Translations under genes and position numbers: made by a program | Part shown: in pieces, positions 6,477 through 61,088 of the stretch | How positions within the stretch are numbered: position 1 is the stretch's first letter | How the letters are laid out: each line of letters opens with the position of its first letter | The notes under the pieces: model-generated | Told to the model about the DNA's origin: nothing | The model's database searches: none | Seen by the model: the letters and a program-made list of their open reading frames with translations, nothing else | Source: Centroberyx gerrardi | Taxonomy: Eukaryota; Chordata; Actinopteri; Beryciformes; Berycidae | Reading direction: 5' to 3' | Length of the DNA: 64,000 bases | NCBI RefSeq assembly: GCF_048128805.1 | Contig: NC_136008.1 | Span: 13,349,072 to 13,413,071 of the forward strand

Positions 6477-9400
6477 ATGGACCAGAGAGTGAAGGGGGGT
6501 ACCCCTCCAACCTCACACACCCCCCTGGCCCCCACCTCTCCACCTGAAGACTCAGAACAGGAACAAGTGGCGGAGATAAGGAGGAGGGGCGAGGGCGAGA
6601 ATGGAGACTTAGGGAAGAGAGAGGAGGAGAGAAGAGGAGCAGGGAGGAAGAAAGAAGGAGACAAAGGGGCAGTGCTGGAGCTGCTCATCGAGGGCCGCTG
6701 TGGAAGCGCAGGGCAGCAACAGCTTCAGTTCCCTGGCAGAGAGGCTAGCTGCCCTGATGGGAATGTACGACTCCGGATCGGACTCCAGGCCAAACGGACC
6801 AAGAAACCGCCCAAGATTCTGGAGAGCTATGTCTGCAAGCCCACCTTCAGGACCTATCAGAGACAGGGCAGGGGGGGGGTGCTGAGGGGGGACGGAGAGG
6901 GAGGAGTGGGCCAGCAGGGCAAAACCAGCCCCACACCAGAAGAGGCATCCAGAGAGCAAAGCTCAGGGTTGGATCCTGTCCAGAGCCAGTCCAGACAAAC
7001 TGCATCTACCGCTTCACCAGCGCTGTCATCATCGTCGTTGTCGTCATCGGCATTGCAGCCACTTCCTACAGCTTCCAGCCCAGCCTCAGCCCCTGCCCTC
7101 GCCAGCCCAGGGACCAAGTCAGCCAAACAGGTAAGGACAAGGGCATTTGCCTTACACACACACACACAAACAGCTGCCATTATTAAACCCACTATTATTT
7201 GAAGTTAACTCAAAATGGAAAAAAACCTGGGGGGAGAAGGGAAAACATAATGACTGAAGGTATTCATAATCACATAGTAATACATTATTAATGGCACATA
7301 TGTGGTGTAGCTCTGTTTTGGTTTTCGTAGTCAACCACCAGACAGGCTTATCTGGTGCAAAATTATCCAGCTTTGTGCTCAGTGGTAATAAGGTCAAATG
7401 AGCTATTGTCTCAATACTGAAACCTAAGCAGCACATTTGAGTAAACAGACCTATAAATAGGACAACAGCACAGCAACTACTAGGAGCTGTTACAGACATT
7501 GGTTCATCAGTCCTTATGACAATCACCCAAGGGGAAGCTTATTGCTTTAGCTGCAAAAACGCCACTCAAGCTGCAGCATTCCAAAATTACAGGACAAGCA
7601 CGAAATGTCAAGCCTTCTCATCTCTATTAGTGGCAATTTATAGCTACCAATAGCACAGCTTTCTCCCTCTCTATCTCTGTCCCTCTCTTCTATTTTTACA
7701 TCCCCTCTTTTCTCTACCTGCTCTCATTTATCTTTCACTCCCCCTCTCTCTCTCTGTCCCACTCCCTTTCTCTCTCAGTTTCTCTGCCTTTGTATTTCTC
7801 CTTTCTGTGTCAACCCCATTCCTGTTTCCATCACCTCACTCTCTCCTTCTCCTCACTATGCCCTCCTTTCTCTCCCTGATTGAGTCATTTTGTCCTCAAT
7901 CTCTCTTTTAATGGTCAGACAAAAACAAAAGCATTTAAGTTGTTGTGTTTTCCCCGAGTGCCATTGTCCTTTATTGTTATCAGCAGCAAACTAATAGATA
8001 TCACAGCCATTGTTGTCTATGACAGAGATTGCCTGTTTGCGCCCTCCAGGTTCCTATCAAACTGGCTGATAAGACAGAGGTGAATTCAAATGGCTCATCT
8101 GAGAAAGTGAAGAGAGAGAAGCTTCCTAGTGTCAATGGCCAGCCAGTCCCTGCAGGACACAAACCCTCCTCCCCTAAAACAGACCAGACAGCTCCCACTA
8201 CTCCCTCCACACCATCCCTCCAAACCCCGTCAGCAGGGGAACCCAGGAGTGAGGGAGACACCCCTAACAAACATAATGGTTTGGTGCAGACAGGGAGACA
8301 GAAGGGACTGTCAAATGGGAAAGGCTCCGCCGATGTCCTTGGCCCTACCAAGTCCACTAAGGTCAAAGTTGGAAAACACAGCAGTTCCTCCTCTGCTTCT
8401 CCCAGAGACATGGACTCTGCAACAAGACCCCCAGTCTCTGGCAGCTCCCATAAAGAACACAGCCTCTCCCATAAGAGTAGGACAGATTCTCCTTCCTCTC
8501 CCTCCGTCACCCCTAAACCACACTCCTCCCCTTCTGTGTCTCTCTCCTCTGGCCACTCCCCAAAACAGGATCCTTCTCTACAGCCCTCACTAGAAAAGAA
8601 GAGAGAGAAAGAGAAGAAAGCAAAGAAAGAGAAACGGAAAGAGAAAAAATCCAAGCGAGATAGAGGCGAGGCTGAAAGAGCAAAGAGTGAGAGCAGGAAG
8701 GAGGAAGGCAAGAAGAAGAAGAAAGAGAAAGGGAAGGAGGGGAAATCGAGGCATGGAAAAGGCAAGGATGAAAGAGGCAGGATTGATGATACATGGAGGG
8801 ATGAAGCAGAGAAGATTGAGAGAGGAAAGGCTGAGAAAAAGAGGGATAAGCTTAGCCCAGAAAGACACAGAGCAAAAGATGACAACGCTAAACCTGGTGA
8901 AACAGATGATAGTGGTAAACTAGATAAGACCTGTAAACTACCGAACCCAGGCAGACCAGATGAGAGAGACAAGGCAGATGATACTTGCCAGCCAGTTAAA
9001 CATGCCGAACCAGCAACAACAGGTGACACTAGTAAATCTAAAGAACAAGACGTCCCATCAAAACATCCGACTGTGCCTCCAAGCCACCCCTCTTCTGCTC
9101 CTCCCTCTCTCCCTGCTCTTTCTGCTCGCTCCCCCATCTCTCCCCCTTCTTCACCCCCAGAGCAGGACAGCCGACCGCTCAAGAAGCGTAAAGCCAGACG
9201 GCCCAGCTGGACCAAGCTGGTGCACCGGGCTCAGAGGGTGGAAAACCAGGAAGCCTCTGTAGATTCCCACCATAATCCATTACTAAGTTTCCCCCAGAAC
9301 TCCAAGACGTGCCTCCCTACCAAGGCCACTATCCCGCAGGCAGATGAGTCACACCCAACCCCCTCTATCTCCTCCACCAGCAGCTCCTCCGCTCTTCCTT

Positions 9401-12400
9401 CTGCAACCAAACCTCCATCCCCAAACCAGAGTCACCCCCACTCTGACCCCAGCCCCCCTGCTTCTAGATCCCCCATAATACCTGCCCGAAAGAGGGGCCG
9501 CCCTAAGTCCCACACCTCTAGCTTAGATGAACCTCCACCTAGACTTTCGCCCAGCGCTATCCCAGCTGAAGTGCCCGCTCTTGGGTGTGAAGGAGTTCAG
9601 AAAGCCCCTGTGCTGGAGCCCAGTCCAATACTTCCCAATACCACTCAGTCTACATCCACTCCGAGGAAGCGTGGCCGTCCTCCCAAACGGCCCCTCCCCG
9701 AGGACCAGAGTGGAGATGCGAGTCAAACTGATGTTAAAAAGAGGAGTAAAGACTTGCATTCTGAAAAGGGCAACAGGCAGCTGAAGATCAGGAGGCTGAT
9801 TAGTGAGATGAAGAAAAGAAAGAAGAGGAGACTCCACAAGGGAACGCTGTCTGAGTATGGAGGAAAGGAGGGAAGGGGAGGAGAGACAGATGGAGAGACC
9901 TCTCTCGGAGTGTGTAAGTCAATAGAGGCTACAGCAACACACACCCTCTCCGCCCTGTCCTCCTCCTTTGGGGGTAAGCTGGGCCCTCAGATCAATGTGA
10001 GTAAGAGAGGGACCATCTACATGGGCAAGAGGAGAGGACGCAAGCCTAAAGCTCAAACAGCTAACCTAAACTCCAGCTCCCAGAATTCAGCTCAGCCTGC
10101 TCTGTTCACCAATCCCTCTGAAACCTCTCTTTTCTCCTCCAGCCAACCCCAACCTCCCTCTCACCCTTTCCCCTCCCCATCTCTTACCCACTCCAGCGGC
10201 GCTCAAAGCCCTTATAGTGAAGGCAGCCTAGCAGAACATCCAACATCTTCCCTCCTTTTTCCTCACCCCTTCTCCCTCCCTTCCCCGTCTTCCTCCTGCA
10301 CCTCCCCTCGCCCTCCCTCCTCCTCATCCCTCTCTCCCTTTGTGAAGAAGAGTTGTCCATGTCAGGGAAGGCATCACTTCCCCTTCCACCAGTCGTCATG
10401 TAAGCTCTCCTCTCCCACCCATCCACTGCATCACACACCTGGCTCTCCTGCCCACCTGAAAGAGGCCACCCCGTCCCCCAGGAGCGAATCACACAGCGAG
10501 GAGACTTTGCCTAGTGATAGTGGAATTGGCACAGATAATAACAGCGTCTCAGAGCGAGGAGAGATGAGGGGAGGCCGAGGCATGCTCAGGATGGGTCAAG
10601 GCTCAGGAGTGATTCTAGGGGGTCAGAGACACCCCTCCTCTCTTGTAGACCGTCCCTCTCCTGTCTCGTCACCCCTCTCTGCCATGCACAGACACACTAA
10701 CCCCATCACCAATCCAGCTACCATGGAGCGACACAGAGAAAGACACAGGCACAGGCGGAGGGAGTATGACTGTGTCCCTTCATGCACTTGCCTGTGCCCA
10801 TGCCCCTGCCCAGGGCACAACAAGTGCACTCATTCGGACTATTATCCTTGCCTTGGGCACAGTGCACTGAAGAGACAGAAAAATAAACACAAGAAGAAGC
10901 ACCAGCAGCTGCACATGCAGGACCCAGAGTTTCTGTCTGAACTAGATGATATGATCGGTCAATTCAGTGAGGTCCACATCGGACGCCGTAGTTGGGCAAG
11001 GACCGGACTGGGCCAGGGCTTCGATGGGAGTGGGAATGCCGCTGGAGGAAGGCGCCATCACTCTTCGTCCTCACATCCTCTCCGCTCCAACATCTTCAGG
11101 ATCAATCTGAATGGCTTCTACTCCCCTCATCCTTCCTCTTATTCTACTAATCCCTCCTTCTCGCCCCAACCTTTCTACCCCTGCCAGCCAGTGCATTGTG
11201 GCAGGAAGCCAGACCGCAGGCAGTGCGGTTGCCCTTCAAAGTTCCAGGAGACCATTGACGATATGGGCTTCTACAGAGGCTACCCCCCGACCGCGCCGCT
11301 CTACCCCCACCTCCACAGCTCCTTCCCCCTGCACTCTCCTCACCAGTATGCCGCCCATCAGCCCCACCACCCCCACTTCCTCCTCAACCCAGCCAGATTC
11401 CACAGGCGGAGGAGCAGGTTGCTGAGGGAGGGAGGTTTAGGAGGAGAGGTCGAGGGAGAGATGGGAGGCAGTGGAGGAGGCCCACACCTCAGCTCAGGGT
11501 TCGTCTCCAGCCTCTCCTGTGGCTGTGGGAGGAGTGAACACAAACACAAACATAAACACCGTCACCGACACTGCGAGCGAGACGTGGAGGACGAGGAGGA
11601 GGTGCATGACGATGAGGAGGAAGACGATTTGGAGAGAGAGGAGCTGGCCAGTTCGAAGCCAAGGTCAGGGTTCATCGTGGGGCCAGGAGACGGAGGAAGG
11701 AAAGCGACAAGAGGAATGGGGAGTATGGGGTCAACAGAATCACCTTGGTTATGTGAGAATGGAAAAGATTCCTTTTCTTCTTCTGCTGCTGCTGCCAGTG
11801 CCTCATCATCATCAACATCCTCAGCAGAGAGGTTCAAACACACATCTCTCACCTCACTGGGTCTGGGTTCCTCTCACCTGTCCTCATTTGGAGGAGGCTG
11901 GGGCGGCCTGGGCCAGCCCTGGATGAAGGTAGGGGGCTTGGGAGGGTCAGGATTCGGACTCTCCAACCCCAGCTGGAGAACCTTCACTGGGGGGCAGCAT
12001 ACAGGGAGGATGGTTGCATCAGACAGAGAGGAGGAAGATGAGGAGGACATTGAACAGACACACCTGTACAGGACCTCCCCATCCCCAACACACACCAACC
12101 TGTTCACCTCTGCTGCCATGGCAACAGGGGGGAGGGGCCTGAGGAGCGGAATGGGCAGTAGGACTCCAGGGAGTGGAGACAGGTCATGGAGGAGGGAGGA
12201 GCCAGCCTGGACAGAGAGGAGAGGAGCAGGTGAGGATGGATGAATGGATGGATTGATAGATGCATGAATGAATTGATCACTGACATCACTGTGCTGCTGC
12301 CCAATGGCAGATATGAGGTTTTGCTAGGTGTAGTGCCAATGTTGTTGGAGCAATATGTGGACATTTTGCAATGCTAGTATTTGAAATGAGACAAAGAGGT

Positions 12401-15400
12401 GTCTACTGTCAACATTGGTCAAGTGGTGTCCTGAGTTGTGGTGTAAATGCACAGTCATGCTCTGTTGTATTGTTTTATTGGCAGAAAATATAGATATGTA
12501 GAATATTGACAGTAATCCAGATAATATAGAAAATATGTTTCAGTAGCTACATCTAATGACATCAGATTAAGCACTCAAAATTGTTACAGTTGAGCGAATG
12601 GGTTTTATGCCAACAGCCACTTTTCACTTTTTCACTGTGACTGATTCTCATATTTGCACAATGTGGAGATAAGATGGCAGTAGCGATAGTTTGCCCAATA
12701 CAGCGGTGATAGCATTGCTTTTCCTCAGGTGTTGTTGAGCTGCACATCAAAGCCTGCAGGGTGTTTTGAGAGGAAATCAGACTCCGTTCTTTTTATAGCC
12801 AATTTCAGACTCCCTCTGCTGAGCAGGGGACGTGCCTGACACATGGGCACACACAGACACACACATACACACACACACTTAGACACACTCAAAACACACA
12901 ACCACTCAGCAACCATTCTCTGTTGGATTTTTTAAAAAGCGTTATAACAGGCAGGCAGGCAGCATCTTGATGGGAATCTGCCAGAAAATCTTTGAAATCT
13001 TCTTGGTCTGTAGCGAACCGCACGCTGTTTCAGCCCGGGGCTACCCAGTGAACACAGTCATTAGTTAACCACCAGATTGGCTATTTAAAGCCGAGCCTCT
13101 GCCTTACTGCTGGCCAACAGGGCCTATTTGACTTGGAAAAATCCAATAAGGAAAGAGTGGTCAGTCTTGTCAGGGACTGTGGAAAATGGAACAAAAAGAT
13201 AGATGACCTCAGGAGGGATGATTGATGAAGGAATAGCACGGAGGTCAGAGAGGGGGCAAAGAGAGAGGGTGAGGGGAGACTTGTTTTTGAAACGGGTGGA
13301 ATATGTTTGACATGAGTACATCATCTAACCAAACACATATGTGTTTTGAAGTACAACACGCAAGCACGCACGCACACTCACACACACTGTTTTCCTCTCT
13401 CTTTCTCTCTGTCTTCAGTCTCTTGAGGTTGTGTTCAGAGTGTGCAGAAGCAATTTGTGTACGGGCGTGTGTACGTGTGTGTGCTCACATAACAATAAAG
13501 TATGCATGCTGCACTGTATTTGTGTCCATTTGTGTGGCTTTTCGGGGGTGTGTATGTACATAAATCACTTCTTAATGCATTTCCCAGAAAGTGATCTGGT
13601 CAGAGGAAATGTTGTGACTCACCTAATCTGTGGCCCATCCGCATGACTCAGTCTAGAGTGGCCTCACCTCACACCTCCTGCTGGCTCAATCACTGATCCA
13701 CATCTGTCTCATTTCCTCTCTGCCACTTACACCCCCCTCTCTCACTCCCTCTGCCTCAACCCCTCCCTCCCTCTTTCCATTTCAACGGACTGCAGGTTTA
13801 CAAGGTGACTCAAGAAGCCGGGGGCAACAGAAAAGTGTGCCAGCGCCAGACGGTGTGACGGTGAAAAAGAAAAGAAGGCCAGGACGGCCCAGGAAGCAGC
13901 CGCTGCCCTCCCCTGTATCTCCCCCCACGCACTCCTCCACAGCTCCCCCTGTGTCATCGCCCGACCTCCTGCCGGGACACAGCCACAGCAGAGATGGTAG
14001 AGGAGTGGGAGGGAGAAAAGAGGAAAGAGTGGCGGAGAGAGAACAAGGAGGAGGCGATACAGTGCAGCAGGTGACTGAGTCAGTATTGCAGGCCAAGAGG
14101 AAGAGAGGACGGAAGAGGAAGCACAGCGATTCCCCCTGTCGTCAGAGGTAAACACTCAACTGCTCCACTCCAGCGCATACTATCGCACCTGAACTGGTTG
14201 ACTTGCATTGAAAAATACAATACAGCCACTCACCACTACTATATTAACACATGGTTTTCAGCACTGTGTGCTAAGCCAGTGCCTTTTCTCTCTTTCTCTT
14301 TTTTTCTCTCTATCATTCTATCTCTCTCTTCATGCCTTCTTTTTAGTGTCGGTGAGGATAAGCCAGAGTGTGACGCCCCCCCTGAATGTTTCGGCCAGTC
14401 AGAGCTTGACCCGTCTCCGTCCCAAACAGTAACCGTCCAATGGGAGGAGAGAGCTGATGTTCCACCCAGGAAGAAGTTTCTGAGGGCAGGGCTCTACTCT
14501 GATGATTACAAAACCACAGAGTGAGTTCATTAGACACTGGGTGGACAGAATTCGCATACTGCATAAGCATAATTTATTGTTCATCTTCTAAATGCTGTCA
14601 TGCATCTGTTTTGCAGTCCCCCCTCCCAAGCCCAGCAGGCTAGCAGAGAGAGTATGGAATACACACCAGGAGAGCGCGACTACAGCCTTTTGCCTGCTCC
14701 TATCCATGTTGGTGAGTATATGTGAATGTGCTGTCATTCCTGTAGCTGTTTGTAGTCTCTCCCTATGACTTCTAATTGTATCTGAAAGAGACAGCCCCTC
14801 CAAATTCCCCTTGTGTCTTCCAGGGAAGTACCTGAGGCTAAAGCGGATTGATTTCCAGTTGCCCTATGATGTTCTGTGGCTCTGGAGGAACAACCAGGTA
14901 CGGTTTCGCTCCTTAACACAACAACAGGAGGTCGGAGGTGACTAATACAGTCTAATAAAGCCAGCCATAACTTTCATAGTGTAACAGTTCTTGTGTAGTA
15001 GGGGGGATGCCAAGCTGAAGCCTCTTTGGAGAAAATAAAAAGCAAGTGTTAAGATGAGATCACTCTGGTTTAATAAATATGCACTGTACACATGTGTAGC
15101 GGGATGTAAACCTCATGTTGTTTTGTCACAGCTTCACAGGCAGCCTGCTGTGCCCCTGAAGAGGAAGCGGCACTACTGTGAGTAGTCAGCATTGGATGTG
15201 TGATGTTCAGGTTCAGTTGGGTCCGATCCATACTTTTATCTTACACCCTCTCCCTGTCTCTCTCCCTTTCTCTCCCTCTCACTCATTCACTCACTCACTC
15301 CCTCTCCCCCCCTCTCTCAGGCCGGCTGAAGGAGAAGACTGTATCCTCTCAGCAGGCAGTGGTGAGTTTGAGAAGAGAAAGATGTTCCATAGCATCGAAG

Positions 15401-16707
15401 GCTGTGCCCATACTAATCGTAACTAAAACTTACATGCATCCCTCCATTCGCTTCTTTTCAGGAGGAGAGCTCTAGCGACATTACCAGCCTCTTTCCTCAC
15501 CTCGACATGGATCCTTTGACCAGCAGTGAGAGGTATGGAAAGAACACGCACCCATTTACATTTCGAGCTAAACTATTGGATGCGCTAACACTGTTCTAAT
15601 GTCTATGGTAATGGCTAATGTTTCTCTCTGTGTGCCGGCCAGGAGCTTTGTGGTGAAGCACCATGTGTTCCTGGTGAGGAACTGGGAGCTGGTGAGAGAT
15701 AGACAGATCCAACTGAGGATAGAGAGGGAGAGGGAGAGAGAGAGAGAGGCAGAAGGAGAGGAGAGGGACACGCGGCATCTGTCCTGTGATGGAGCCAATG
15801 GGGACGACAGCCACATCAAGTCAGGTCCATGAAGCAAGTGTGTGTGTTAGTTTTTGTTTCTGTAGGTGTTTGTGTATGTATACGTGTATGCGGTTGAACT
15901 GTATACATTTTCATTTCTACTGTACATCTATATGGATGTCTTTTTGTGTCCTGTGTGTGTGCGTCTTTGTTTTTTGTGTGTGCATGTACTGTATATGTGC
16001 GTGTGTTGGTGTTCTGCTTACTGCCCGTTGTCCTCATATTTGGCTTGTCTCTCCATATCATACTCAGCAGTATAAACTAAGTGGTTTTCCAACCACAGAC
16101 TTTCAGCCTGCAGAAATGTTTCCCCATTTCTGTCATCTGCTACTGGTGTCCAAGAACCCAGCAGGAATCAGCTTTCCCCATTAACAATAAAACCACACTG
16201 TTTCCATCAAAGAGTCCCTGACTGATCACAGATAGAAGAGGGGAAATAAGGACACACACACATACACACACTTACAAATAGAATTGAACGGTCCTGCTGT
16301 GATCCCTTCCCTCCTGTACTGCCATCATTAACATATACTGTGTGACCTTTGACCCTCAGATCAGCCAGTGGGGGTGGAGGAGATGGTCATCAGCAGTGAC
16401 CCCCACTGTCAGACTCAGGACACCTCCAGCCCTCGCACTGCCAGCCCCCATGTGAGTACATGCTGAAAAAATGCAACATTTCCCACAGAAAATAAATGTC
16501 TTTTCTTTTAGCGATTCAATTTTCCACACGGATGGAAATCTGCAACTGCATTTAGTCCTGCATATTTGTTCACCACAGCCTACCAAAACCCAGAATAGAC
16601 AAGAGGAGGAAAGAGAGGAAGAAAAAAGAGGGGAAGAAGAGGTTTGCAGCAGAGAATTGAGGAGGAAACGGCTGAATGACTTACTCCTGACCCTGCAACA
16701 TTCATAA
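6477..16707 (+). CDS. ash1l: ASH1L-family chromatin protein lacking SET, bromodomain, PHD and BAH (SET-less paralogue)
   Basis: Exons: 6477-7130, 8050-12229, 13796-14147, 14347-14520, 14617-14711, 14824-14897, 15132-15177, 15321-15361, 15462-15532, 15643-15824, 16360-16451, 16579-16707; 6090 nt, 2029 residues, open throughout. ASH1L signatures in order: [15 protein letters not shown] (about residue 100); AT-hooks KRGRPK (about 698), KRGRPPK (758), KRRGRKPK (878), RRPGRPRK (about 1638); DSGIGTD degron (1041-1047); [11 protein letters not shown]; a Lys/His-rich run; [47 protein letters not shown]-terminal [13 protein letters not shown]. Human ASH1L (2969 residues) is a nucleosomal H3K36 methyltransferase. 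Here nothing encodes AWS-SET-postSET, bromodomain, PHD or BAH, and the introns around the missing parts are only 0.1-0.5 kb. The likely role is nuclear DNA or chromatin binding without catalysis (inference). The degron and AT-hooks also occur in SETBP1, but the sequences flanking the SET site are ASH1L-specific. Confidence 0.88.
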
Positions 16708-17216
16708 GCTAAGAGAGAGAGGTAAGTAGAGCTTCAGACAGAGCTGCAAGGTAAGAGAAACAGAGAGAGAGAGAGAGAAAGAGAGTCAGGGGAATGCATT
16801 ATTTGACTGACAGGATCTTGTCTCTGTGCAGGTGGGACCACTCCGGGAAAGGGACCAGGCCCACCATTGGACAGATGGACGGGAAGCGATGTCTCCACAC
16901 TACTACCACAGTAGTAGTACCACAGAGAACAAGGCAAAGATGAGAAGAGGACAGAAGGAAGAACGATGGCGAAAGAAAATGCATGAAAGACATCTCACAC
17001 ACTCGCAGATGAGTGTGTTGAACCCAGTGCTCAGAAGGGCATCACACCAAGGATGAAACCATGGCAACGCATCCTTTGTCCAAGTGGCGAGGGATGAGAG
17101 AAACACAGAGAGAGACTGTCCCAGCTGAAAGAAACAGACCAGCTCAAATGAATTTGCACTAGTGCTGGATGAAGAAGCACACTAAAGACTGCATGCTAAG
17201 TGGCCACACTATAAAT

Positions 17217-17250
<34 letters not shown>

Positions 17251-18850
17251 TTTGATCGCCCTTACTTTGGCACCTTAAGCAAACTGGCAAAGAGAGACAT
17301 TGCTCGGAGAGTGAAAGTGGACACATGGTACTCGACGTTTCAGCTCTGAAGTTTCCAAGAGGCGAGGAGCTTACAACCTGCTCAGAGGAACAAGAATGTG
17401 GGCCGGGCCTCAATAGGTCAAACTAGCACCCTCATTTACTCCTTTAGCTTTCAAAGTTACATCGGTCTTTATCAGTGCAGATGTGGGAAAGGACATAAGG
17501 AGAGAAGGGAGCCACTTAAAAAAAACTGTCGTGACAGTGTTATGGTCTTCTCCGCTTTACCAAGACAGCGTCTGTTATCTACCAGTGAATAGGCAGGGGG
17601 AGGGGTCGGACTTAGTGATAGCAGGAATTTTGGCATCGCTGCAATAGAATTTCTAATGAGGTTTTAAGAAAGAAAGAAGTTATTTTTGAAAATGGCAGAT
17701 TGAGTACTCTCTACTGAAGAAATCAACACAGTATATCGATGGTAGGAACGTTTATTGTTGACTATTTTCAGTATTGCTTCCCGGGGGGTGGGAGGGGGTA
17801 AAGTGTTTTTGTTTACTTCAGACTGCCTTTGAGAATGTTTCGCTCTTTGCTCCAGTCAGAGCATTGACAATCAGAATGTCTTAGGGGGAGAAGGAGAGGA
17901 GGAGAGGAGGAGAGAGGAAAGGGAATGAGAGAGAGAATTTACCCCTAATGCTCTGTAGAAGTGCCATGTTGTCTTGTGTATACCTAAGCGAAATCATGCA
18001 GTCTTTAAAAGCAATATCTCCTGTGATAAGGACTACATAAGGACTTCCTTTGTTGTGTTTTTTTTTTTTTAATTGTGAATATTTGGGGATTGGAGGTCAT
18101 TTTTCTGTACAGATACATAGTAGATTGTTCTCATCATAGGAGCATTGGGCTAATCCACTTAGTCAGCAGTGGAAGGAACCACAGCGTTTAGTTCCATGTG
18201 AATGTACATAGAGACAGAACCGTTTCCCTTCTATCAACAGTAGCGTGTAAAATTAGTATTATACATTACATAATACTATTGGGATTATACATAAAAGTTA
18301 ATAATCAAAGCCTTCATTTTACTAAGATGTTTTTAACAAATTATATAACTGACCAATATGATATATCAAATATTTCTCTTTAAAATTGACTATGATTGTA
18401 TATGAATTTTTTCTAGAATACATAATTTGTCTCTTTTTGGTTGAGTGTAATTTTTTTTCTATTGGTCAGACAATCAGTGATAAGTGAATTAGTTAGTTTT
18501 TTTCCAGTGTTAAATTCAGCTCTATTTCAGTAGTGAGGCTTCCAATAACAAGCCAAGAAAGTGCAATTTCTTTGACTGTTTACATACTGTATGTATATTT
18601 CTCTCTTTCCTTTTTTAACTAAGAGCACTACATTATTGCCAGTGGATGATTAACTTTATAGCAAAGGTACACATAAAGAGTTATTTATCTAGTTTGCATG
18701 ACATGTAACCTTTGCCTATTGCCTCTGATAATGTGCATCTGAAAAACAAAACTTCATCAAAAACAAAACTATTGTAACTCAACGCCATAGAATGTCAGTT
18801 CAACCTTTTGCCTCTATATCCATGATAATAAAAGCATTTTATGTCTACTA
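16708..18850 (+). other. 3' UTR of the ash1l-like gene with poly(A) signal
   Basis: No coding exon for a SET, bromodomain, PHD or BAH module is seen after the stop. An AATAAA at 18827-18832 is the probable poly(A) signal. The stretch includes a (CA)n at about 17218-17243 and A/T-rich sequence typical of a UTR. Confidence 0.6.
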
Positions 18851-19709
18851 CTAAACCCTGTGAACTAAGCTACATGGCTTCCTCATTGTTGTGTATGTGG
18901 AGGGGGGTACTGCAGTGACGTTAATTAGCTTGTGCTAACAGTGCTATCTAGTGGCGTGAGATTGAATATCTCACACTGTGTTGTCCTCCATAATGACCCA
19001 CAATGGAGGCCGCTATCAAAAGAACACTCCTACAAGATGGGGGAGGGCTGCAGCTCGCTCCGGAGATTGGTTCCCTTCGCTCTGCCCTCCGCAACATCCT
19101 AGGACATCCTGGGACCGGGTCCGGCCAATGAAATGACAGGCATCTCCATGAAGCATTTCCTGGGGACTTTAAAGGAACATAGAGTATAATAATAATTAAA
19201 AATGTTTATGGTCGTCTTTTTCACTTCCTCTGCCAGGACTGATCTGACAGATTGCTTCCTGTCAGATTGCATATTGCAGCAATAAAGGAAATGAAATCAG
19301 TTTAACATTTTCTGAGATGTCTTCACACATGACTTCCTGATTAATAACCTCAGCTATGGTCGGAACAACATGACTCAAACAGCTGAACAGGTTTGGTTTA
19401 TACTGATCATTTTATTTGGTGTATTTACAAACAAGCACATGCAGGAGCTGGACAGTGACTGACACTACAGGGGCACTGAACTATATGCAACAGTAAGATA
19501 CAGGGTTTGTCTACAGGGCAGGCTACATGACACCAGAGAGAGAGAGAGTTACAGAACCCACTGCTACACGCAGCCGTGCACACACACACACACACACACA
19601 CACAGATACACAAGTGAAAACGCAGATGTGCAGACACATGAATGTGCTCACACTCGTATCTGCGTACACTGCATACCCTGCCACACACTGCGATGCACGC
19701 TCACACATG

Positions 19710-22084: not shown

Positions 22085-25000
22085 TCACATGATGAGGGAG
22101 GTGTAGCCAATAGGTACCAGCCCCTCTATGTCTCCCTGACGACAGCGAATCCAGTCTTGGTCAACGCCTCCTAAAACCACGAGCTCCTCCCCTTTGCAGA
22201 AGCTGAGCTCCGACCCCGCTCCAGTGTGGTCACACAGCGTCCGTACTGACCTGGGGAGACAGCAGAGTTTCAGCCAACATCACCAACACTTACACCAACC
22301 ACAAACAAGAAAACATGTCATCCCCAGCAAATGACACAGGCAGCCCTTGAATCAATCAACCCTCAAGTTCAATCAAAATCAAACTGGTGGTGTAGCAGTT
22401 ATGGTCTCTCTAAAAAAAATTTAATTTTGAGCTTAAATTCTAGCGTCCCCATCAGGCCAATCGTAATTTTTAAAATGTGCCATCCCCCCAAGTTTAATCA
22501 AAATTGGACCAGTGCTCTCTGAGATATCATGTTGGAGTTAACACTTTTGATCTTTAATTATAGCGCCCCCATTAGGCCAATCAGTGTAATTTGTGAGGAT
22601 AGCTGGATTTGTGTAGCAACTTTCATGTCAATCTGACTTATGGTATACTTACGGTGTATGAGTTGGGGCCTTTCAAAGTTTGAAATGTTGACCTTTAATT
22701 ATAGCACCCCCATTAGGCCAATCAGTGTAATTTGTGAGGATAGCTGGATTTGTGTAGCAACTTTCATGTCAATCTGACTTATGGTATACTTACGGTGTAT
22801 GAGTTGGGGCCTTTCAAAGTTTGAAATGTTGACCTTTAATTATAGCACCCCCATTTGGCCAAATAGTGAAATGCTTTTAAACATCAGAACACAGTGCCAA
22901 ACTGCATCATCCCTCAAGGTTTTGTCAAAATCAGATTAGCGGTGTGAGATATCACCTGAGATACCACATTCGATAAACAGAAGGACAGATAGAAGGACAA
23001 AGCCCAATCTACAGTCCCCACCCAAATCCTGATTTCATTATGTGAGCGTCAACAACATCAAAAGGCGCCCTTCATATCACCATCACCATCATCCCGTGTG
23101 TGTTGTACCTGAGTGGTCTGGGTTTGTCCCTCATCTCCAGTGTCTCCACCTCTCTCTCCGTCTCTGGCTCACTCTCTCCCTGCGGCTCTGCTGCCCTCCT
23201 CATCGTCGGGGTGGAGCTGCTGCTCACCATCCGGGTCAGCGCTGTGACCCCAGGAGCCAACCACTGAGACGGACGCCTGCAGAGAGAGACAGAGACAGAG
23301 CGAGAGAGGGAAAGACAGAGAGAGAGAGTGAGACAGAGGAATCACAGACACTTATGACAGTTACCTTTCAAGCAACAGAGCAGTGGTTTTCTATTTTGTG
23401 CCATCGTGACTCAAGAGTATCCAGGTTTTCATTCTGACCTGCTGTAGTGTTTGGTCAGAATGAAAACCTGGACACTCTGGGGTCACGATGAAACCACTGC
23501 AGCGTACATGAATATACTTTGCATCAGCTAACCTGGTTGGTGGTATGTGACCTGACGGGCTGTTGGGGCTTTTAGAGGCTCCAAAGAGCCGGCCCAGACC
23601 CCAGGGGACTGGAGCACCGCTGTTGACCCGAGGGAAGTCGCTCCCTGCCTGGACCTGGAGCTCCGGCAGGTCCCTCTTCATCCCCTCCTTTTTCTGGCTC
23701 AGCTCAACCAGGTTCTGGCTCAGCCGGCCTCCCCAGCGCACCATTGCCCCCCATCCCTGCTGGATCACCTATATATAAAAAAAAAAAGAGTGAGAGCGCT
23801 GCAGGGACACACTCGCATACATGACTACAACCACTGAAGAGGCACGGAAAGGTGAATACCTGTCCTGCCTGCTGAGCAAGGCTGTCCTCCTCAACACTAG
23901 GGGGAGGTAACTCTCCGATTTCCTTCTCCTGTACCCACAACAGCTGAGGACTTGTCTGCCCGAGGCTGACTGGGGTCTTGTTGCTCAGGTTGCTATTCGA
24001 TGATTCCCCTGACCCTCCGTTCATCTGATTGGCCGAGGGTGAGGAGCCTGCATTATCATTGGCCGCCTCGGGCTCTGGGCTTCTAAAGTCCACTTCTGAT
24101 AGGCTCTCGAGGTAGCTGCTGTCCCGGGCCTTGGAGAGGGACCCGCTGGGTGAGAGCCTGAATCCTACATCCTGACTGGGTGGACTGGGGATCTCTGGGC
24201 TGTGACTGTCTGGCTCTAAATGGTGGTGCTGGAAGAGCAGGTCGAGGTTAAAGGTCAGCAGGCTGAGGGGCTGCAGCAGGAGGAGCAGCTCCTCGAACAG
24301 AGGCTGGCAGGTGGTCAACGACAGACGCATAAAGGAGGATGGACGGTAGTACGTCTCCAGCACATCTGACAGAAAGACAGATCACTCTTATTTACAAGCA
24401 TGTTCACAACGATGACATGAACATGAATCATGATGGAAGTGGCAGGAACTTACCGCCGCAAAACTGAAGGTGAGACAGCCAGAAATCAAGAAGCTTGGTA
24501 CTGAAAGACAGAGAAAGACGATTAACCAGGTGAGAAGAGGAATACTGAGGATACATAGAGGATGTGTGTGGAGAAATGAGAATATGAGTGCAATAAACTG
24601 ATGAAATCACATTTTTAAACTATTGCAACACCTTCCTTGCTATCAGTAAAGGCCAGGGAGGAATAAGAGCCAAGACTTACTTGAGCAGGCCGAGGAGGAA
24701 GGCGTTGAACCTGTGTTTGCTCTGTTTGAGCTGGGGCAGCTCTCCAACTCTGACTTGTAGGTTGTACAAGGCCTGGGTTTTAGGACCTTGAGAAACGGGT
24801 GGAGAGGATGAAGAGAAAATACATAGAGAGAGAGAGAGAGAGATGAGGAGGGGAAATTACAGAGGTGAGAAGAAAAAAAATAACAGTGAGGCTTTGGCAC
24901 TCGAAGGCCAATCAATATCCATATCCTTTTGTTCACTTTATTCGGCATTTTCAGACACTGAAAGCTGAAGTATTGAGTGATGATGTGGAAAGGTGAGAGA

Positions 25001-28000
25001 GAGACACGAAGTCTAGTGCTAATAAACAACCAGAAAAGAAAACCCACAGAAATAATAGCCTACTATTCAATTCTACAACCAATCATATCTGTGAAGTATT
25101 TGCACTTATTTTGCCATACTCCTAGGTGTGCTACCTGGCTTGGTTGAGGCCTGGACGAGTCCCCAGGCTGAATTTGGCCTCCTGCCAGCAATCAGGTCAC
25201 TCTGGTGGGGTTTTAGGCCATCGGACAGCAAGCTGCGCAGGGCGGGGCAGAGACACTGCAGTACCAGACGGCCCAGAGATGGATTTACACTGCTGTCTCC
25301 TGATAAGGCCTGAGGAGAGGAGAGGAGAGAGCGGAAGAGAGGATGGGAACAAGAGGGATAGAGAATGGGAGGAGAGCATGGCAGGGGTGAAGTGGGATAG
25401 AGAGAAGAAGAAGAGGCGCAGTGATGGAGAGAGACAGGGGAAGAGATCAGAAAGGATGACTCAAAAGAGAAAGGGAGAGGGAGGGAGAATACATACAACG
25501 GGGGTTGAGAGACACAGGGGACGGCAAGGGTTGACATGATGTGATGAGATGTGATTTGGGAGGGGAGTTTGGAGTTAGTATATAAAGAGATTCTGACTAC
25601 TGAGAGAAAGGGTAATCTAAAGTCATTCTAGTACCTTGTTAACTGAGAGAGACTGAGGAGAGACAGAACAAGATATGTAGAGTCAGAACAAGAAGGAGAC
25701 GAAAGGCATTTCCACAGTTAATAATACATTTAACACAATAAAACAAATTAATTTGTCTAGATATGAAGAGATTGCTAATATATTATCAAAAGACATATTT
25801 ACTTCCTCTGTGGACAAAACAATCATCAATATGAAACAAAATACTGGTATTAAAGTAAGTACTAAACCCAGTCACCCAAGCCCAGCAATTGAGGGCTTGG
25901 CAGAGACTGACCTTCTGAACTACAGTCCGAGAGGAACTGAACTGGGCCAAGATGGCTTCCACTGCCACACTGACCGCACTGACCAGACCTGGAGGACAGA
26001 ACAAAAGCCTACAGTTAAACAGTGACAGCCACAGACGTCAAAGACACACAAAGAAACACAGCTGAACAGAGGCACACACACACATTCACACACACACACA
26101 CACACACCTTTCTTTTCCTGCAGGTACAGAGAGGATAGGCCAAGACCTCTCATGGGATTCTTCACATCTTCGCCCATCCAGGATGTCTCGCCCCTCTGTA
26201 CAGAGCCAGCGAATGAGACACTGCGAACAGCTGGGATTGACAGTGAGAGAGGAATTAGGTCCCAGTATAAAAGATTCAACAGGAGAAAAATAAATCACAA
26301 CAGACAGAAATACCACAACTAAAATATTAGTATTATTAGTAGTAGCATTTAAGCAATGAGAAGCATTGGAGTAGGCAGGTAGCAGCAGATGGGATAATTG
26401 ATGGTATACATGTGAGCACATCCTGTAAATATTGGTGTACTGCAGTGACTTTTCCACATCTGGATCTGTGAAGATGACATTCGGTCTATGTCAGCGATAG
26501 ACTGGATCCTAGCAAACACCTTTCACTGGAAGGCTTACCACTGGCCATGCATTAACCTTGACACACAGTCAAATGCTGACATACAATACAATACATTGCC
26601 ACACATACACACAGTCGCACACTCACACGCACACACACACACACACAGAGAGAGAGGGAACTGCAGAGCTAGGGGGGGAGAACGATTGTATGGGCTAACA
26701 CATCAAGGCAATCAATCAGGTCAGATATAATTAAACACACGTGCAGAGGGCAGGTGTCGTGTCCAGTCTGACTTCCATATAAATGGATTTATATAAACTA
26801 GTTATATAAATGCAAACATTTATATAGTGAGCAGGATGTTAGTTTGCTCTGGCGCTTAGTTACTTCTAAATTGCCTAAATACACACACACGCACAAAGAT
26901 AAAAAAAAGGTTTTACTTAGCAGTAACAGTATTTAAATTAACATCATCATCAACAGGCCTGTCGGGTTGTGCTCTGTGCGAAATGCATGTGTCCATTTCA
27001 ACACACCATGCAACAATAACAGAAAATAATAAAAACAACGTGGAGACAGACAAGCAGACGGACAGAAAGAAACAGAGAAGGACAAAGAGAGTGATGAACA
27101 AATCTAGACGCCCTCTGACAGGAACAGCTGTTACCCTTCCCTTCTGAGGGCTGTTTGCAGATTTGAAAGGACTGCGTAGATAAGAAGTATCAGATGACCT
27201 GCAGGGAGCCGCCTTCTGATGAATAACATCGCTGCACTTACCCAGTTCTTTCAAATCTGCAAATCCCCGGGGTTATAAAAGAGAGGAAAGCGTGGGGGCC
27301 TCTATTCAGGAGCAGAGAATAAAGACAGAGACAGACAGACAGACAGCAAGAAAGACAGACAGACATGCATGCAAGCAGGATGTTAGACAGAGAGAGAGGA
27401 AGTGTGAGACTTCGGGAGAGAGAAGAGAGAGAGAAATCTTACTCGGCACACGTGGCTGCGGAGGAGCCTGGTTGAGTTTTGGGGGTAGGGGGGGCGCCGT
27501 GGCCGATATAGGGGGGTAGAGGTAGGGATAGTAGAGGGGTGCAGCGAGGGCAGGCAAGGTGTGTGAGCGGGGGAAAAGCGGGGAGCTGAGGCAGGAGCCC
27601 GCCACCCCTGCGGGGGGCGCTCCGGAGCGCTGGGGAGGGGAGAGGGCTCCGATGGGGGAGAGGCGAGGAGGGGCGCCCCGGTGCAGAGGGCAGTTTTTAG
27701 GGTGATACAGATAATAGGTGGGGAGGGGAGGAAGCTCTTTGGATGTCCTAGTCTTGTTGCTGTTATGGTCCGTGTGAGAGGAGGTGTGCAAGTGTGTGTG
27801 TTTTTCTGTGCTGCGTGTATACAGCGAATCCATAGTGCTGAGCGTGTTTGAGTAGGTCATCACGGCATCAATGTTCTTATACGGGGTGGTGCAACCTGGT
27901 GCCTGAGTGGTGCCACTCACGGGTGTGTGTGAGTCAGTGTGTGTGCTGGTCTGCTCCTCAGAGTCATTGCAGTAGAGGGAGTCAAAATTACTGATGGAGT

Positions 28001-31000
28001 CAGATACAAAGTCATAGTCCAGGTCTGGTTTGGTTTTGGAGTCATTGATATATTTGTATGTTGAGTCTATGTTGCTTTTAAAGTCATTCCCGAAACGACG
28101 AGAAGAGACTAAACCAATATCAGAGAGGGGGGCCGATTCAAAGCTACACACAGAGTTTTTATCAGTCTCAGAGTCATCTCTGTGGATACTGGCTGAGCTG
28201 GCAGCAGGGGCCCGCTGTGTGGTGAAGGGTTTAGCCCCGCCTACATGGCTGTGGGGCCTGGGGTCTGCAAGAGGATGTGAGTTACAGTAGCCTAGGCGAT
28301 AGGAAGGGAGGGCAGCGTGGAGGAAGTAGGGTGAGGCCAGGGACTGGGAGCAGGAGTGGGCAAGGGACAGTGGGGGTGAGGAAACTGCTCATTTAAAAGG
28401 GTAAGCGACCAAAGTTGGGGGGTATCGGAGTCAGGACGGAGGGGGAAGGTGCACAAGCAAGATGATATGAGGGAGAGAAGCAGAGCCGTGGACAAATGTT
28501 GGAAACAACAGAATGGCATGGAAAGGTGAGAAAAAACAAGGAAGAGAGTAAAAAAAATGCAGCAAATAAATGGGAAGGAGAGAGAGATGTAGAAAATGTT
28601 AGTGTCTGTTGAGAGAAAAATGCACATCCATGAATATATTCCAGCAGAACCTGTCATCATGTAACAACATGCAGTAATGCAGTATTCAAACAACATGTCA
28701 AACACTCAGGTTAACAGTTACACATTGATAGTGCATGAGAGTCAATGGAGTTGAGTTATGAAGAGCAATAAGTCCTGGTTTAAGAGATCTGGACGAAACA
28801 GGAAATGATAATATACCATGGCTATAAAAGAACACTTGTTATGCGATCTCACAGTTGCATAACATTAGATACTCTCAATCTGTCCATCAGTCACTCATTC
28901 ACCACTGAAACACCATTATCAACCACAATGATTCATCATCTTCCAATGTAGGTTAAGGCTCCACGTTTTACTTTCTATTTTATACTCGCAGTGAGAGTAA
29001 TGTTTATGAAGTACAAGACACCACAGCAAGTGAGTGTCAATCTTTATGCCAAATGTTTCGTAGTATATACTGCAGTGGATGCCATCATCACCTCTGGATC
29101 ACCTTCTTTCTCTTTCTCTCTCTCCCTTATCTGAGTTGCCTTTGTCTCTACCTCTCTCTCCCTCTTTCTCCACCGCCCCTCCCCTCTCCACCAGTACAGC
29201 ATACAGTGTAATGCTGAGTCAGTCAAGAGATAGCAGAGTTCTGTTCGTTCCTGCTTAGTCACAGTGTCTGTCTCTGTGGAGATTCGGAGACTGGCACCAC
29301 AGTTTGCATTACACTCAATTACCTGTGACAGACTGCTAGGCTATGGGCAAAAAAAGCAAGCTAGAATGCTACCATACCTGGTTAGACTTCAGCTGTCTTT
29401 CAAATGAAACCAACACATGATACTTCCTATTTTTCTGACATTGGCTCTCAGTAATTGGTTCATGAACAAAGACCCGCCCCTTAGGCTCTTAAAGGTGTAC
29501 ACACCTATTCCTGGCTTAGTGACCACAGCTTGTGGCAGAAAGCAGTGATTTTGGGGGCAACTTTTGCTGCATACAACTCAATTATTCCTTAAATTTTGAT
29601 AATCAGAAAGTACAAGTTAAATCATTACATAATACTACAGTAATTGCAAGGATCAGAGCAATAGTTAGTTATAGTAATAGTTAGCAATAGCAGCATTTGG
29701 TGGGGAAACTGGGGCATATAAAATAAATGCTTGCCCTACTGTATCAGGACAAGTCTAAGTCTTCGTTTCTATGTACCACAGGACGGTATGAGATAAGTAA
29801 CTTGATCTGAGCTATCGATGCCACTCTTGGGAGCAAGAGAATAAGAGAATAAAAACAGGAAGGGGGGGAGAAGGTGATGAAAGGTCCAGGAGACAGGACA
29901 GACAACAGGAGAAAAGCATATAAATGTCCCAATGAGTCACCAAGCTGAACAGCAAGTGAGGGAGAAAAAAGATGAACAATAGGAAAAGATGTAAGGATAC
30001 ACATAGGAAAGAAGGAGAAAGCAGGAGACAAGCAGAGCTGAGGGAGAGTTAGAGGGAGGACAAGAAAGAGAGAGAGAGAGACTACAGGAGGAGAGGTAGG
30101 GCGCTCAGTGGGCACTCCATTATCCCCCTCCCCTTGGTCTGAGGAGAGGATGAATAATTGAATAAGGCAGCGATGACATCACACTCTGATAAGCAGAACA
30201 GGAAACACTGACTGGAGAGTTTCCAACCTTTGCCTTCTCCTCAGATCACCTTCACTCCCTGACTGTCTTTATGTCTCCATCTCTCGCTCATGTTGCCTCT
30301 CCAGCTTCCACTGTCTTGCCCTCCCCCATCTGAAATCACCCTCTGTTTATCCCCTCTTCATCCTTTATCCATCATATCACGCATCAGCCTTTTCTCTGAC
30401 TCATGTTCTTCCTCCGTCTCTGCTCTCCTAATCATTGCGCTCTCTCTCATTTTACATCCTCTCTATCCCTGTCTCTACATTTTCATCTCCCTCGGTTTTC
30501 CTATTTCTTTCCGTAGCTCTGTCCACGGACATTATTTGTGCATCACCGAGGAAGAAAAAAGCAGACTGTTAGTCCCTCTCTCTCTCCATCTGCTTCTCTC
30601 CATCATCTGCCCATCCCAGATTTGGTGAGCCGTCCAAATTACACAGAGGTACTTTGATGTATCCCTTGTTTATTTTCTCCCTGTGCAGACACACGCTGAT
30701 GCAGATGCAGGTGCGCACGCACAAAAATACACACATGCACACACAAACATCATATATCCTTTGCAAATTCACATAAAGGGTTTTTAGCCATTTAGTTTGT
30801 TTCAAAACGTCCAGACATTCTGTGAGAAACCCCATCTACATCTATCACCATCATCACATCATCATGAAAACTCATACTCACTTGTAGTTCTTGATTCCAA
30901 AGTCCTTCCTCCATCCGCTCTTCCTCTCACCTCCACCTCTTCTTCTTCTTCTTCTTCATCTTCTTCCTTCCCCTCCTTTTCTTTCCACTTAACTTCTTCA

Positions 31001-34000: not shown

Positions 34001-34170
34001 GGGCCTTTAGTAGCCCGGCGCGGGGAGGAAGTGGGGATGGTGTTCATGTTTTTATCCTCCCTCCGAAAACCAGGGCCATGAGACTTTGGTTCAGCTGAAG
34101 TATTGGTCCGTCTGCTTGTGTCAAAACGCCGCGGCCTCGGAGGCTGAGAGGGGCGGCTAGAGGATTGCAT
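22085..34170 (-). CDS. rusc1: RUN and SH3 domain-containing protein 1
   Basis: RUSC1 is a cytoplasmic adaptor in vesicle traffic and neurotrophin or TRAF signalling. Exons, minus strand: 30882-34170, 27443-28264, 26108-26230, 25912-25988, 25135-25309, 24681-24786, 24454-24500, 23860-24365, 23533-23768, 23109-23276, 22085-22250; 5715 nt, 1904 residues. A candidate microexon at 27242-27256 adds NLKEL in frame. The first coding exon is low-complexity, with an Asp/Glu run (about 225-262), many polyproline stretches, and a conserved block starting [19 protein letters not shown] (about 394). [13 protein letters not shown] leads into the RUN domain (about 1413-1590; [22 protein letters not shown]). 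The C-terminal SH3 is 1851-1904 ([29 protein letters not shown]). Human RUSC1 is about 902 residues, so the N-terminus here is much longer. RUSC2 is the alternative, but the position beside fdps favours RUSC1. Confidence 0.9.
22370..23030. repeat. interspersed repeat containing tandem 141-bp units
   Basis: Units starting TAGC(G/A)CCCCCATTAGGCCAA occur at 22561, 22702 and, diverged, 22843, exactly 141 bp apart. The first two are almost identical. A more diverged unit begins near 22441. The array lies in the last rusc1 intron, and flanking sequence (AATCAAAATCAAACTGGTGG and similar) looks like the same repeat family. Confidence 0.65.
23379..23502. repeat. foldback (long inverted repeat) in a rusc1 intron
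   Basis: The arm at 23402-23440 (core CCAGGTTTTCATTCTGACC) is the reverse complement, with about four mismatches, of 23453-23491 (core GGTCAGAATGAAAACCTGG), around a 12-base loop. Outer segments GCAGTGGTTT and AAACCACTGC extend the stem past a bulge. It looks like a foldback or MITE-type element. Confidence 0.7.
27242..27256 (-). other. rusc1: candidate 15-nt microexon of rusc1 (NLKEL)
   Basis: On the minus strand an acceptor ending tttgcag precedes ATTTGAAAGAACTGG, followed by a consensus donor gtaagt. Upstream exon 27443-28264 ends in phase 1, and exon 26108-26230 begins with the last two bases of a codon. Inclusion therefore adds five residues (NLKEL) in frame. The UGC just before the AG is typical of SRRM4-dependent neuronal microexons. 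The exon is inferred only from splice signals and phase. Confidence 0.5.
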
Positions 34171-34296
34171 TGTGGGAATAGGACTTTTGGGACACTCAGA
34201 TATTTTTGTTGCTATAGAAACAGAGGTTCTAAAGGATGGAGAGATCCAAACTGTGACTGGCCGTGACGGTCACATCTTGGCTTGACTCCCAAGACC
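34171..34296 (-). other. 5' UTR of the main rusc1 coding exon
   Basis: An acceptor (gttacag) ends at 34297 on the minus strand. The following 126 bases contain in-frame stops before ATG 34170-34168 ([11 protein letters not shown]). Confidence 0.6.
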
Positions 34297-43176: not shown

Positions 43177-48318
<5,142 letters not shown>

Positions 48319-58053: not shown

Positions 58054-60858
<2,805 letters not shown>

Positions 60859-61088
60859 ATTGACCAGAGATGGTTGGACGCCGTCGGGGGAGAGAAAGAA
60901 CAGAACTTGATGCTTATCAAGTGACACTGCCAAGGAACTGACGAAGCAAGGGGAAATGGGAGGAGAAGGAAAAAGCAGAATCATGTAATGTAATACAGGA
61001 AGCAGTGTATCTACAGTATGTGCAGAGAGAAGTACCTCGGTCTAGTGAGGCCTTACCAACACCCTTCACCCACTTGTCTTTCTCTCTT

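What the first reader, a model, noticed from the sequence alone, without database searches (positions are those of the whole stretch)
14824..15824. ASH1L-family gene that has lost its AWS-SET-postSET methyltransferase core but stays open
Seen: exons 14824-14897 and 15132-15177 encode the sequence that precedes the AWS-SET module in ASH1L ([18 protein letters not shown], then [13 protein letters not shown]). Exon 15643-15824 encodes the block that follows it ([14 protein letters not shown], then DDSHIKS). Only two tiny exons lie between (41 and 71 nt), and the introns are 104-143 bases, far too small for the roughly 630 nt a SET core needs. All 12 exons keep phase and total 6090 nt without a stop. 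Known: ASH1L acts as an H3K36 methyltransferase through that core. Inference: a teleost paralogue was reduced to a non-catalytic chromatin-binding protein that may compete with or scaffold for the intact ASH1L.
Basis: partly seen in the sequence, partly recalled or inferred. Interest (0 to 1): 0.85.

Follow-up and report, generated by a model that had tools for sequence, protein, structure and literature searches.

The report
ASH1L duplicate stripped of its enzyme
A fish carries a second copy of the chromatin gene ASH1L that has lost its enzyme and histone-reading domains but keeps an open frame and the short motifs that hold its two known partner proteins, so it may act as a natural decoy or scaffold for the working copy.

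Summary
Window 6477-16707 (+) holds a 12-exon, 2029-aa ASH1L-family gene, gap-free, introns GT..AG. It lacks AWS-SET-postSET and also bromodomain, PHD and BAH. An intact ash1l lies on C19 of the same genome; its SET matches PDB ASH1L at E 4.6e-129. Good ASH1L-type SET and BAH exons were found only there, so misplaced exons are unlikely. The tiny exons are inherited: exon 8 is the truncated tail of the post-SET exon, exon 9 an ordinary ASH1L exon. Kept are the KYLR..FQLP stretch that binds MRG15 and six of seven named residues of the Caf1/RBBP4-7 motif. These two motifs changed less than other retained columns (5/41 against 143/377), though some blocks without known partner are as conserved. 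Best reading: an old ohnolog, probably from the teleost duplication, kept as a non-catalytic scaffold or decoy for MRG15 and RBBP4/7. Expression, binding and other fishes are untested; human comparison sequences were partly recalled.

The parts
6477..7130 (+). exon 1: start codon and N-terminal ASH1L block ([18 protein letters not shown])
8050..12229 (+). exon 2, 4180 nt: long low-complexity region with AT-hook-like motifs and conserved ASH1L/SETBP1 blocks
13796..14147 (+). exon 3: AT-hook-like RRPGRPRK; the HVNKILxAKKLQRQARTGN block of the intact copy is missing
14347..14520 (+). exon 4 (174 nt, as in the C19 copy)
14617..14711 (+). exon 5 (95 nt, as in the C19 copy): [19 protein letters not shown]
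14824..14897 (+). exon 6 (74 nt, as in C19): MRG15-interacting stretch; KYLR at 14826-14837, FQLP at 14853-14864
15132..15177 (+). exon 7 (46 nt, as in C19): last exon before the missing AWS-SET-postSET exons
15178..15320 (+). 143-bp intron at the place where the intact copy has its AWS-SET-postSET exons; CT-rich acceptor tract
15321..15361 (+). exon 8 (41 nt): truncated 3' end of the post-SET exon (GRLKEK.. in C19 reads CRLKEK.. here)
15462..15532 (+). exon 9 (71 nt): corresponds to C19 exon EEESSDSNKFYPHLMKPMSNRER (68 nt)
15528..15691 (+). Caf1/RBBP4-7-binding motif (split by intron 9): [18 protein letters not shown]
15643..15824 (+). exon 10: rest of the Caf1-binding motif to DDSHIKS; weak donor at the conserved place
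15825..16359 (+). 535-bp intron at the place where the intact copy has bromodomain-PHD-BAH exons
16360..16451 (+). exon 11 (open frame; little homology of its own)
16579..16707 (+). exon 12 and stop; [17 protein letters not shown] matches C19 REAQRERLNKILLDLLH
18827..18832 (+). AATAAA, candidate polyadenylation signal

Best explanation
A second ash1l gene, most likely an ohnolog from the teleost genome duplication, lost its SET core by a deletion that ran from intron 7 into the post-SET exon, with a new splice acceptor inside that exon restoring the frame. It also lost the bromodomain-PHD-BAH exons. It is kept as a disordered, AT-hook-bearing scaffold that should bind MRG15 through KYLR..FQLPYDV and RBBP4/7 through the Caf1-binding motif. 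Since MRG15 is the activator of ASH1L and binds this same stretch, the stripped protein would act as a competitor of, or non-enzymatic platform for, the ASH1L-MRG15-RBBP (AMC) complex. Shown: gene anatomy, absence of the domains, intact paralogue, motif retention. Inferred: the order of events, expression, binding, competition, date of the loss.
For: Open 12-exon frame. MRG15-binding stretch matches the human ASH1L chains of PDB 6INE/6AGO. KYLR with its arginine, F, L and P of FxLP, and the following hydrophobic residue are kept. The equivalents of E1591, V1595, F1601, L1602, R1604 and N1605 of the Caf1 motif are kept; E1591A and R1604A abolish binding in fly Ash1. In exon 10 the stripped copy has [10 protein letters not shown] as in (recalled) human ASH1L, where the intact fish copy reads KHRVFLLRNW. 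The two motifs changed at 5 of 41 informative columns against 143 of 377 elsewhere (Fisher p = 0.0009). Intact ash1l on C19; good ASH1L-type SET and BAH exons only there. Fourfold sites in similar blocks are 55/143 identical, with about 0.26 expected by chance, so the copies parted long ago. Published work: both partners bind Ash1 independently, Ash1 being the scaffold, and SET-less Ash1 keeps chromatin binding and partial function in flies.
Against: No RNA, protein or binding data. One genome only, so the age of the loss is unknown and the motifs could be passive leftovers. The stripped copy evolves much faster overall (148 window-only against 20 C19-only changes). K1608 of the Caf1 motif is L here. 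Other blocks without a known partner are as conserved (for example 3/34 and 4/30 changed). The motifs were chosen after I had seen them conserved, so the p-value is post hoc, and its outgroup is a recalled sequence. The exon 10 donor is weak. Exons 11-12 taken together resemble the C19 tail only through acidic low-complexity sequence (4 of 2000 shuffles as good); the support for them is the C-terminal motif.
Confidence: 0.55

Rival explanations
1. The protein is functional but works like SETBP1, through its AT hooks and N-terminal blocks; the MRG15 and RBBP motifs are leftovers without a present role.
For: The most conserved blocks include ones shared with SETBP1 ([19 protein letters not shown]; [21 protein letters not shown]). 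SETBP1 (recalled) is itself an ASH1L relative without SET, and a setbp1-like locus exists on C8.
Against: The two AMC motifs changed less than the average retained column, which passive leftovers would not do unless the loss is recent.
Confidence: 0.25
2. A decaying ohnolog or pseudogene whose SET loss is recent, so that the frame has not yet broken.
For: Strong acceleration relative to the intact copy (chi-square 97.5); at least one AT hook and the HVNKIL block lost; weak exon 10 donor.
Against: No premature stop in 2029 codons, 11 of 11 introns GT..AG, no recognisable relic of 13 lost exons in 14898-19000, C-terminal motif still recognisable (0 of 5000 shuffles as good). An old loss without selection would not leave this.
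Confidence: 0.14
3. Assembly error: the SET and reader exons exist but were dropped from this locus.
For: Only one assembly was available. Some weaker SET hits elsewhere (31-58% identity) were not assigned to genes one by one.
Against: No N in the window; no good second set of ASH1L SET or BAH exons on any contig; two separate stretches are missing; exon 8 is a truncated post-SET exon with its own acceptor.
Confidence: 0.03
4. It is setbp1, or a paralogue from the older vertebrate duplications, not a teleost ohnolog of ash1l.
For: SETBP1 too is a SET-less relative of ASH1L (recalled). Seven other ORF fragments of the window found no match in C19 17.17-17.25 Mb, so the shared synteny rests on one gene.
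Against: It carries the FxLP and Caf1 motifs, which recalled SETBP1 lacks and which this genome shows only at C12 and C19 at E about 0.001 or better. Its exons 4-7 have the same lengths and phases as C19 ash1l. RPS27 follows ash1l in the same order and orientation at both loci. A less similar locus on C8 is the setbp1 candidate.
Confidence: 0.03

Closest known systems
ASH1L (KMT2H), the intact copy on C19 and human ASH1L
   Same: N-terminal blocks, AT-hook-like motifs, KYLR..FxLP MRG15 stretch, Caf1/RBBP motif, C-terminal RxRLNxxLL motif; exons 4-7 identical in length and phase to C19
   Different: No AWS, SET, post-SET, bromodomain, PHD or BAH; faster evolution; HVNKIL block and last C-terminal exon lost
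SETBP1
   Same: ASH1L relative without SET or reader domains, with AT hooks and some of the same conserved blocks (human SETBP1 recalled)
   Different: Recalled SETBP1 has neither FxLP nor KYLR nor RNW; here both motifs are kept
AMC complex (Ash1-MRG15-Caf1)
   Same: Keeps the two sites through which Ash1 holds MRG15 and Caf1 (PMC5963871, PMC5696344, PMC10148413)
   Different: Has no catalytic domain to be stimulated; binding not tested
Engineered fly Ash1 without SET or BAH (PMC8426247)
   Same: SET-less Ash1 still binds chromatin and partly rescues null flies
   Different: There SET or BAH was removed by design; here both are gone, with bromodomain and PHD, in a natural gene

Membership tests
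ASH1L gene family | Homology to ASH1L outside the catalytic domain | tested here: met
   PDB 6INE/6AGO, E 2.5e-18 and 1.5e-12; blocks shared with C19 copy
ASH1L gene family | KYLR and FxLP MRG15-interacting stretch | tested here: met
   Sequence [17 protein letters not shown]; motif definitions. Binding itself not tested
ASH1L gene family | Caf1-binding motif, seven residues named as conserved | tested here: inconclusive
   Six of seven kept, including the E1591 and R1604 equivalents; K1608 is L. Alignment to fly numbering is mine, by spacing
ASH1L gene family | Bromodomain, PHD, BAH | tested here: not met
   Absent; good ASH1L-type BAH match only on C19
ASH1L gene family | AT hooks | tested here: met
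   GRP- or RGRK-core motifs at aa 701, 760, 880, 1641, 1715; the one at C19 aa 1317 is degraded here (RRQCGCPSK). Against: Pfam scored no AT hook
Active H3K36 methyltransferase | AWS-SET-postSET core | tested here: not met
   No Pfam domain; no relic in 14898-19000; tblastn of recalled human ASH1L finds no SET in the window at E 0.01
SETBP1 | Lacks SET and reader domains as well as FxLP and Caf1 motifs (recalled sequence) | tested here: not met
   Both motifs present here; recalled SETBP1 has none; C8 locus not among the strong hits of the motif query
Teleost-duplication ohnolog pair | Double conserved synteny with the sister copy | tested here: inconclusive
   ash1l followed by RPS27 in the same orientation at C12 and C19, but seven other window ORF fragments, RUSC-like ones included, had no match in C19 17.17-17.25 Mb
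Teleost-duplication ohnolog pair | Gene tree with other fishes | not testable with these tools
   G000 has no relatives in the held genomes
Pseudogene | Disabled reading frame | tested here: not met
   2029 codons open, 11 of 11 introns GT..AG
AMC complex subunit | Physical binding to MRG15 and RBBP4/7 | not testable with these tools
   Needs biochemistry

The most novel reading that the evidence does not exclude
A naturally evolved, enzyme-free AMC scaffold: a vertebrate genome duplicate that discarded every known folded domain of ASH1L but is held by selection on its MRG15- and RBBP4/7-binding peptides, acting as a built-in competitive inhibitor or catalysis-free recruiter that tunes H3K36 methylation by the intact ASH1L, and shared by many teleosts but overlooked because surveys looked for SET or bromodomains.
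Probability: 0.35. Interest if true: 0.75.

Novelty: new variant of a known kind. Interest (0 to 1): 0.52.

Why it matters
If real, it is a natural experiment that separates ASH1L's scaffold role from its enzyme and reader roles in a vertebrate, a question addressed in flies by deletion constructs (PMC8426247). It makes a direct test possible: whether an enzyme-free ASH1L can hold MRG15 away from the active enzyme. It also shows a blind spot: in the passages I saw, a zebrafish SET survey and a tilapia bromodomain survey each name a single ash1l, and a copy with neither domain could not be seen in such surveys.

Tried and rejected
Pfam scan of the 2029-aa protein and eight flanking ORFs gave no domain for the gene itself. 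Searching 14898-19000 for relics of 13 lost exons found nothing convincing: the best case was a bromodomain-PHD exon where 1 of 100 shuffles did as well; that peptide has a histidine/glycine run, and one such value among 13 tests is not evidence. Seven window ORF fragments searched against C19 17.17-17.25 Mb gave no hit at E 0.001.

Papers: searches on ASH1L+teleost+SETBP1 (none), ash1l+zebrafish+paralog (20 listed), SETBP1+ASH1L+paralog, ash1l+teleost and ash1la/ash1lb/ash1l-like/ash1l2 showed no title or abstract start that describes a SET-less ash1l copy. Of those listings I looked inside PMC2200798, PMC9454494, PMC7686559, PMC11883000 and PMC5963871 only. Nine papers in all were seen as passages found by terms (PMC5963871, PMC10148413, PMC8426247, PMC2200798, PMC5696344, PMC8701324, PMC9454494, PMC7686559, PMC11883000); of PMC5963871 I also read section 6. 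The papers behind 6INE and 6AGO were not read.

Codon analysis: the attempt to add exon 7 failed (a text search returned nothing, so codons 1844-1858 were filled wrongly where not already set). Its 'all' and 'ex5-7' lines are not used; the block totals are, and the blocks were chosen for similarity, so dN there is biased low. The chance figure 0.258 comes from the whole aligned set, wrong codons included. In that call three overlapping or off-place HSPs were dropped. In one search the ends of C19 exons 2 and 3 were wrong and were corrected. The counts rest on a recalled human ASH1L as outgroup and on columns conserved between human and C19; one search drops columns inside the SET region, where a few window residues were misaligned. 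Not done: structure prediction, because the spliced protein is not one stretch of window DNA and complexes cannot be modelled here.
Full report
WHAT IS THERE. The window is a gap-free stretch (no N) of a 778.9-Mb genome in 278 contigs, C12:13349072-13413071. That it is a teleost is an inference from gene content and duplicate loci. By composition 76.5 stops would be expected, and the other two frames of the spliced sequence hold 52 and 112. Exons 5-7 match human ASH1L chains in PDB 6INE and 6AGO. Pfam finds no domain at E 0.1.

THE INTACT COPY. A peptide from exons 4-10 finds two loci with E of about 0.001 or better: C12 (the window) and C19 near 17.2 Mb. The list held 40 matches up to E 1; the rest, from a C5 hit at E 0.005 down, were weak and not examined. 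On C19 recalled human ASH1L aligns in order from residue 70 to 2843, through AWS-SET-postSET, bromodomain, PHD and BAH (domain positions recalled), with the C-terminal tail following. My partial C19 model of 14 exons, after two boundaries were corrected, is open over 2360 codons, and its SET core matches PDB 3OPE (human ASH1L) at E 4.6e-129. In the same tblastn the window has nothing between recalled residues 2060 and 2352 or after 2373 at E 0.01. A query with the SET core gives five C19 pieces at 59-82% identity; 23 other hits lie at 31-58%. A BAH query gives two C19 pieces at 97 and 74% and three on C5 at 32-40%. The weaker hits are presumably NSD, SETD2, other SET genes and other BAH proteins; I did not assign them.

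HOW THE CORE WAS LOST. Window exons 4-7 have the same lengths as those of C19 (174, 95, 74, 46 nt) and the same phases. C19 then has five exons for AWS-SET-postSET; the window has a 143-bp intron. Window exon 8 (41 nt) is the tail of C19's post-SET exon: C19 reads ..GRLKEKRKSKHQLKKR, the window [14 protein letters not shown], with a new acceptor in a CT-rich tract that takes the first G of the old glycine codon and gives a cysteine across the splice. Exon 9 corresponds to C19's EEESSDSNKFYPHLMKPMSNRER exon (71 against 68 nt). One deletion from intron 7 into the post-SET exon, followed by frame-restoring splicing, explains the anatomy; this history is inferred. A second loss removed what lies between ..DDSHIKS and the C-terminal RxRLNxxLL motif, which is still recognisable (score 49, 0 of 5000 shuffles as good). 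Exons 11-12 as a whole match the C19 tail only through acidic low-complexity sequence (4 of 2000 shuffles as good). No relic of 13 lost exons is detectable in 14898-19000 beyond chance (all).

WHAT WAS KEPT. The literature gives two partner sites in Ash1/ASH1L. MRG15 binds a stretch before AWS with an invariable KYLR (R1288 of fly Ash1 critical; PMC5696344) and FxLP (PMC5963871), refined to FxLP(x)2-3 plus a hydrophobic residue (PMC8701324). The window reads [17 protein letters not shown], which fits. Caf1/Nurf55/RBBP4-7 binds fly Ash1 1582-1616; the residues named as conserved are E1591, V1595, F1601, L1602, R1604, N1605 and K1608, and E1591A and R1604A abolish binding (PMC10148413). Their spacing fits [18 protein letters not shown] of (recalled) human ASH1L. 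This alignment is mine, made by spacing; the paper's figure was not visible. The window reads [18 protein letters not shown]: six of seven kept. In the fly the two partners bind Ash1 independently, Ash1 being the scaffold. Among columns where human and C19 agree, the window copy changed 2 of 25 in the MRG15 stretch, 3 of 16 in the Caf1 motif and 143 of 377 elsewhere. Blocks of no known partner can be as conserved (4/30, 3/34), so the motifs are not unique in this. Overall the window copy is far faster than C19 (148 against 20 private changes). It lost at least one AT hook and the HVNKIL block but keeps five GRP- or RGRK-core motifs, none of which Pfam scores.

ORIGIN. A query of conserved exon 2 pieces finds three loci in this genome: C12, C19 (two best hits 70 and 80%, a third weak one 35%) and C8 (45 and 61%), the last presumably setbp1. 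RPS27 lies downstream in the same orientation at both C12 and C19 (identity of the peptide). Fourfold-degenerate sites in similar blocks are 55/143 identical, chance about 0.26, so the split is old. Together this fits the teleost duplication. A zebrafish survey ascribes 12 SET gene pairs to that event, two of them with reservations, and names one ash1l (passages); a tilapia bromodomain survey also names one (passages). Against: only one shared flanking gene was established, and seven other window ORF fragments, among them those of a RUSC-like gene, have no match in C19 17.17-17.25 Mb. That RUSC-like gene was found once in the genome; its name is recalled, with a weak RUN-domain match below Pfam's cut-off.

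MECHANISM. The most likely reading is an enzyme-free scaffold or decoy for MRG15 and RBBP4/7, tethered by AT hooks. In flies SET-less Ash1 keeps chromatin binding and partly rescues nulls, and intact AT hooks become essential when BAH is missing (PMC8426247); the window protein has lost BAH and kept AT hooks. In human ASH1L the BAH and bromodomain bind DNA and PHD reads H3K4me3 (PMC11883000), so the stripped protein should lack that targeting. Competition with ASH1L for MRG15 follows from sharing the binding stretch, but needs expression and affinity that are unknown.

VERDICT. Real, with no sign of an artefact in what I could test, and a new variant of a known kind: an ASH1L ohnolog without its folded domains. 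Whether it is kept for AMC binding is the open and testable question.

Noticed in passing
G000 C25 about 6-770 kb and C21 about 19.7-20.6 Mb (L044): Most of the 150 scored SET matches (a capped list) are 144-aa frames with near-equal scores in arrays on C21 and C25. In L044 two copies 6948 bases apart have the same listed 140-aa translation, and the peptide matches PDB KMT5A at E 3.9e-11. The listed frame starts with TTG, so the true gene structure is unknown.
   Followed up: partly
window 58795-60891: RPS27 gene with two SNORA13-like snoRNAs at 58977-59109 and 60129-60260; the C19 stretch with the sister RPS27 has a SNORA35 match instead.
   Followed up: partly
window 23704-34269, minus strand: RUSC1/2-like gene (name recalled) tail to tail with the ash1l copy, the arrangement I recall for human ASH1L and RUSC1; one genome hit for its conserved part.
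   Followed up: partly
window 43062-48384: Fragments of further coding sequence, one with a ..[11 protein letters not shown].. peptide on the minus strand, reminiscent of FAM189B (recalled); no Pfam match for the three fragments tried.
   Followed up: no
window 55874-56305, minus strand: ORF that looks like a LINE reverse-transcriptase fragment (recalled resemblance; no Pfam match).
   Followed up: no
window 15643-15691 against C19 17200951-17200785: The intact enzyme copy has the Caf1 motif that differs more from recalled human ASH1L at two places (KHRVFLLRNW), the stripped copy the human-like one ([10 protein letters not shown]), a hint of division of labour.
   Followed up: partly
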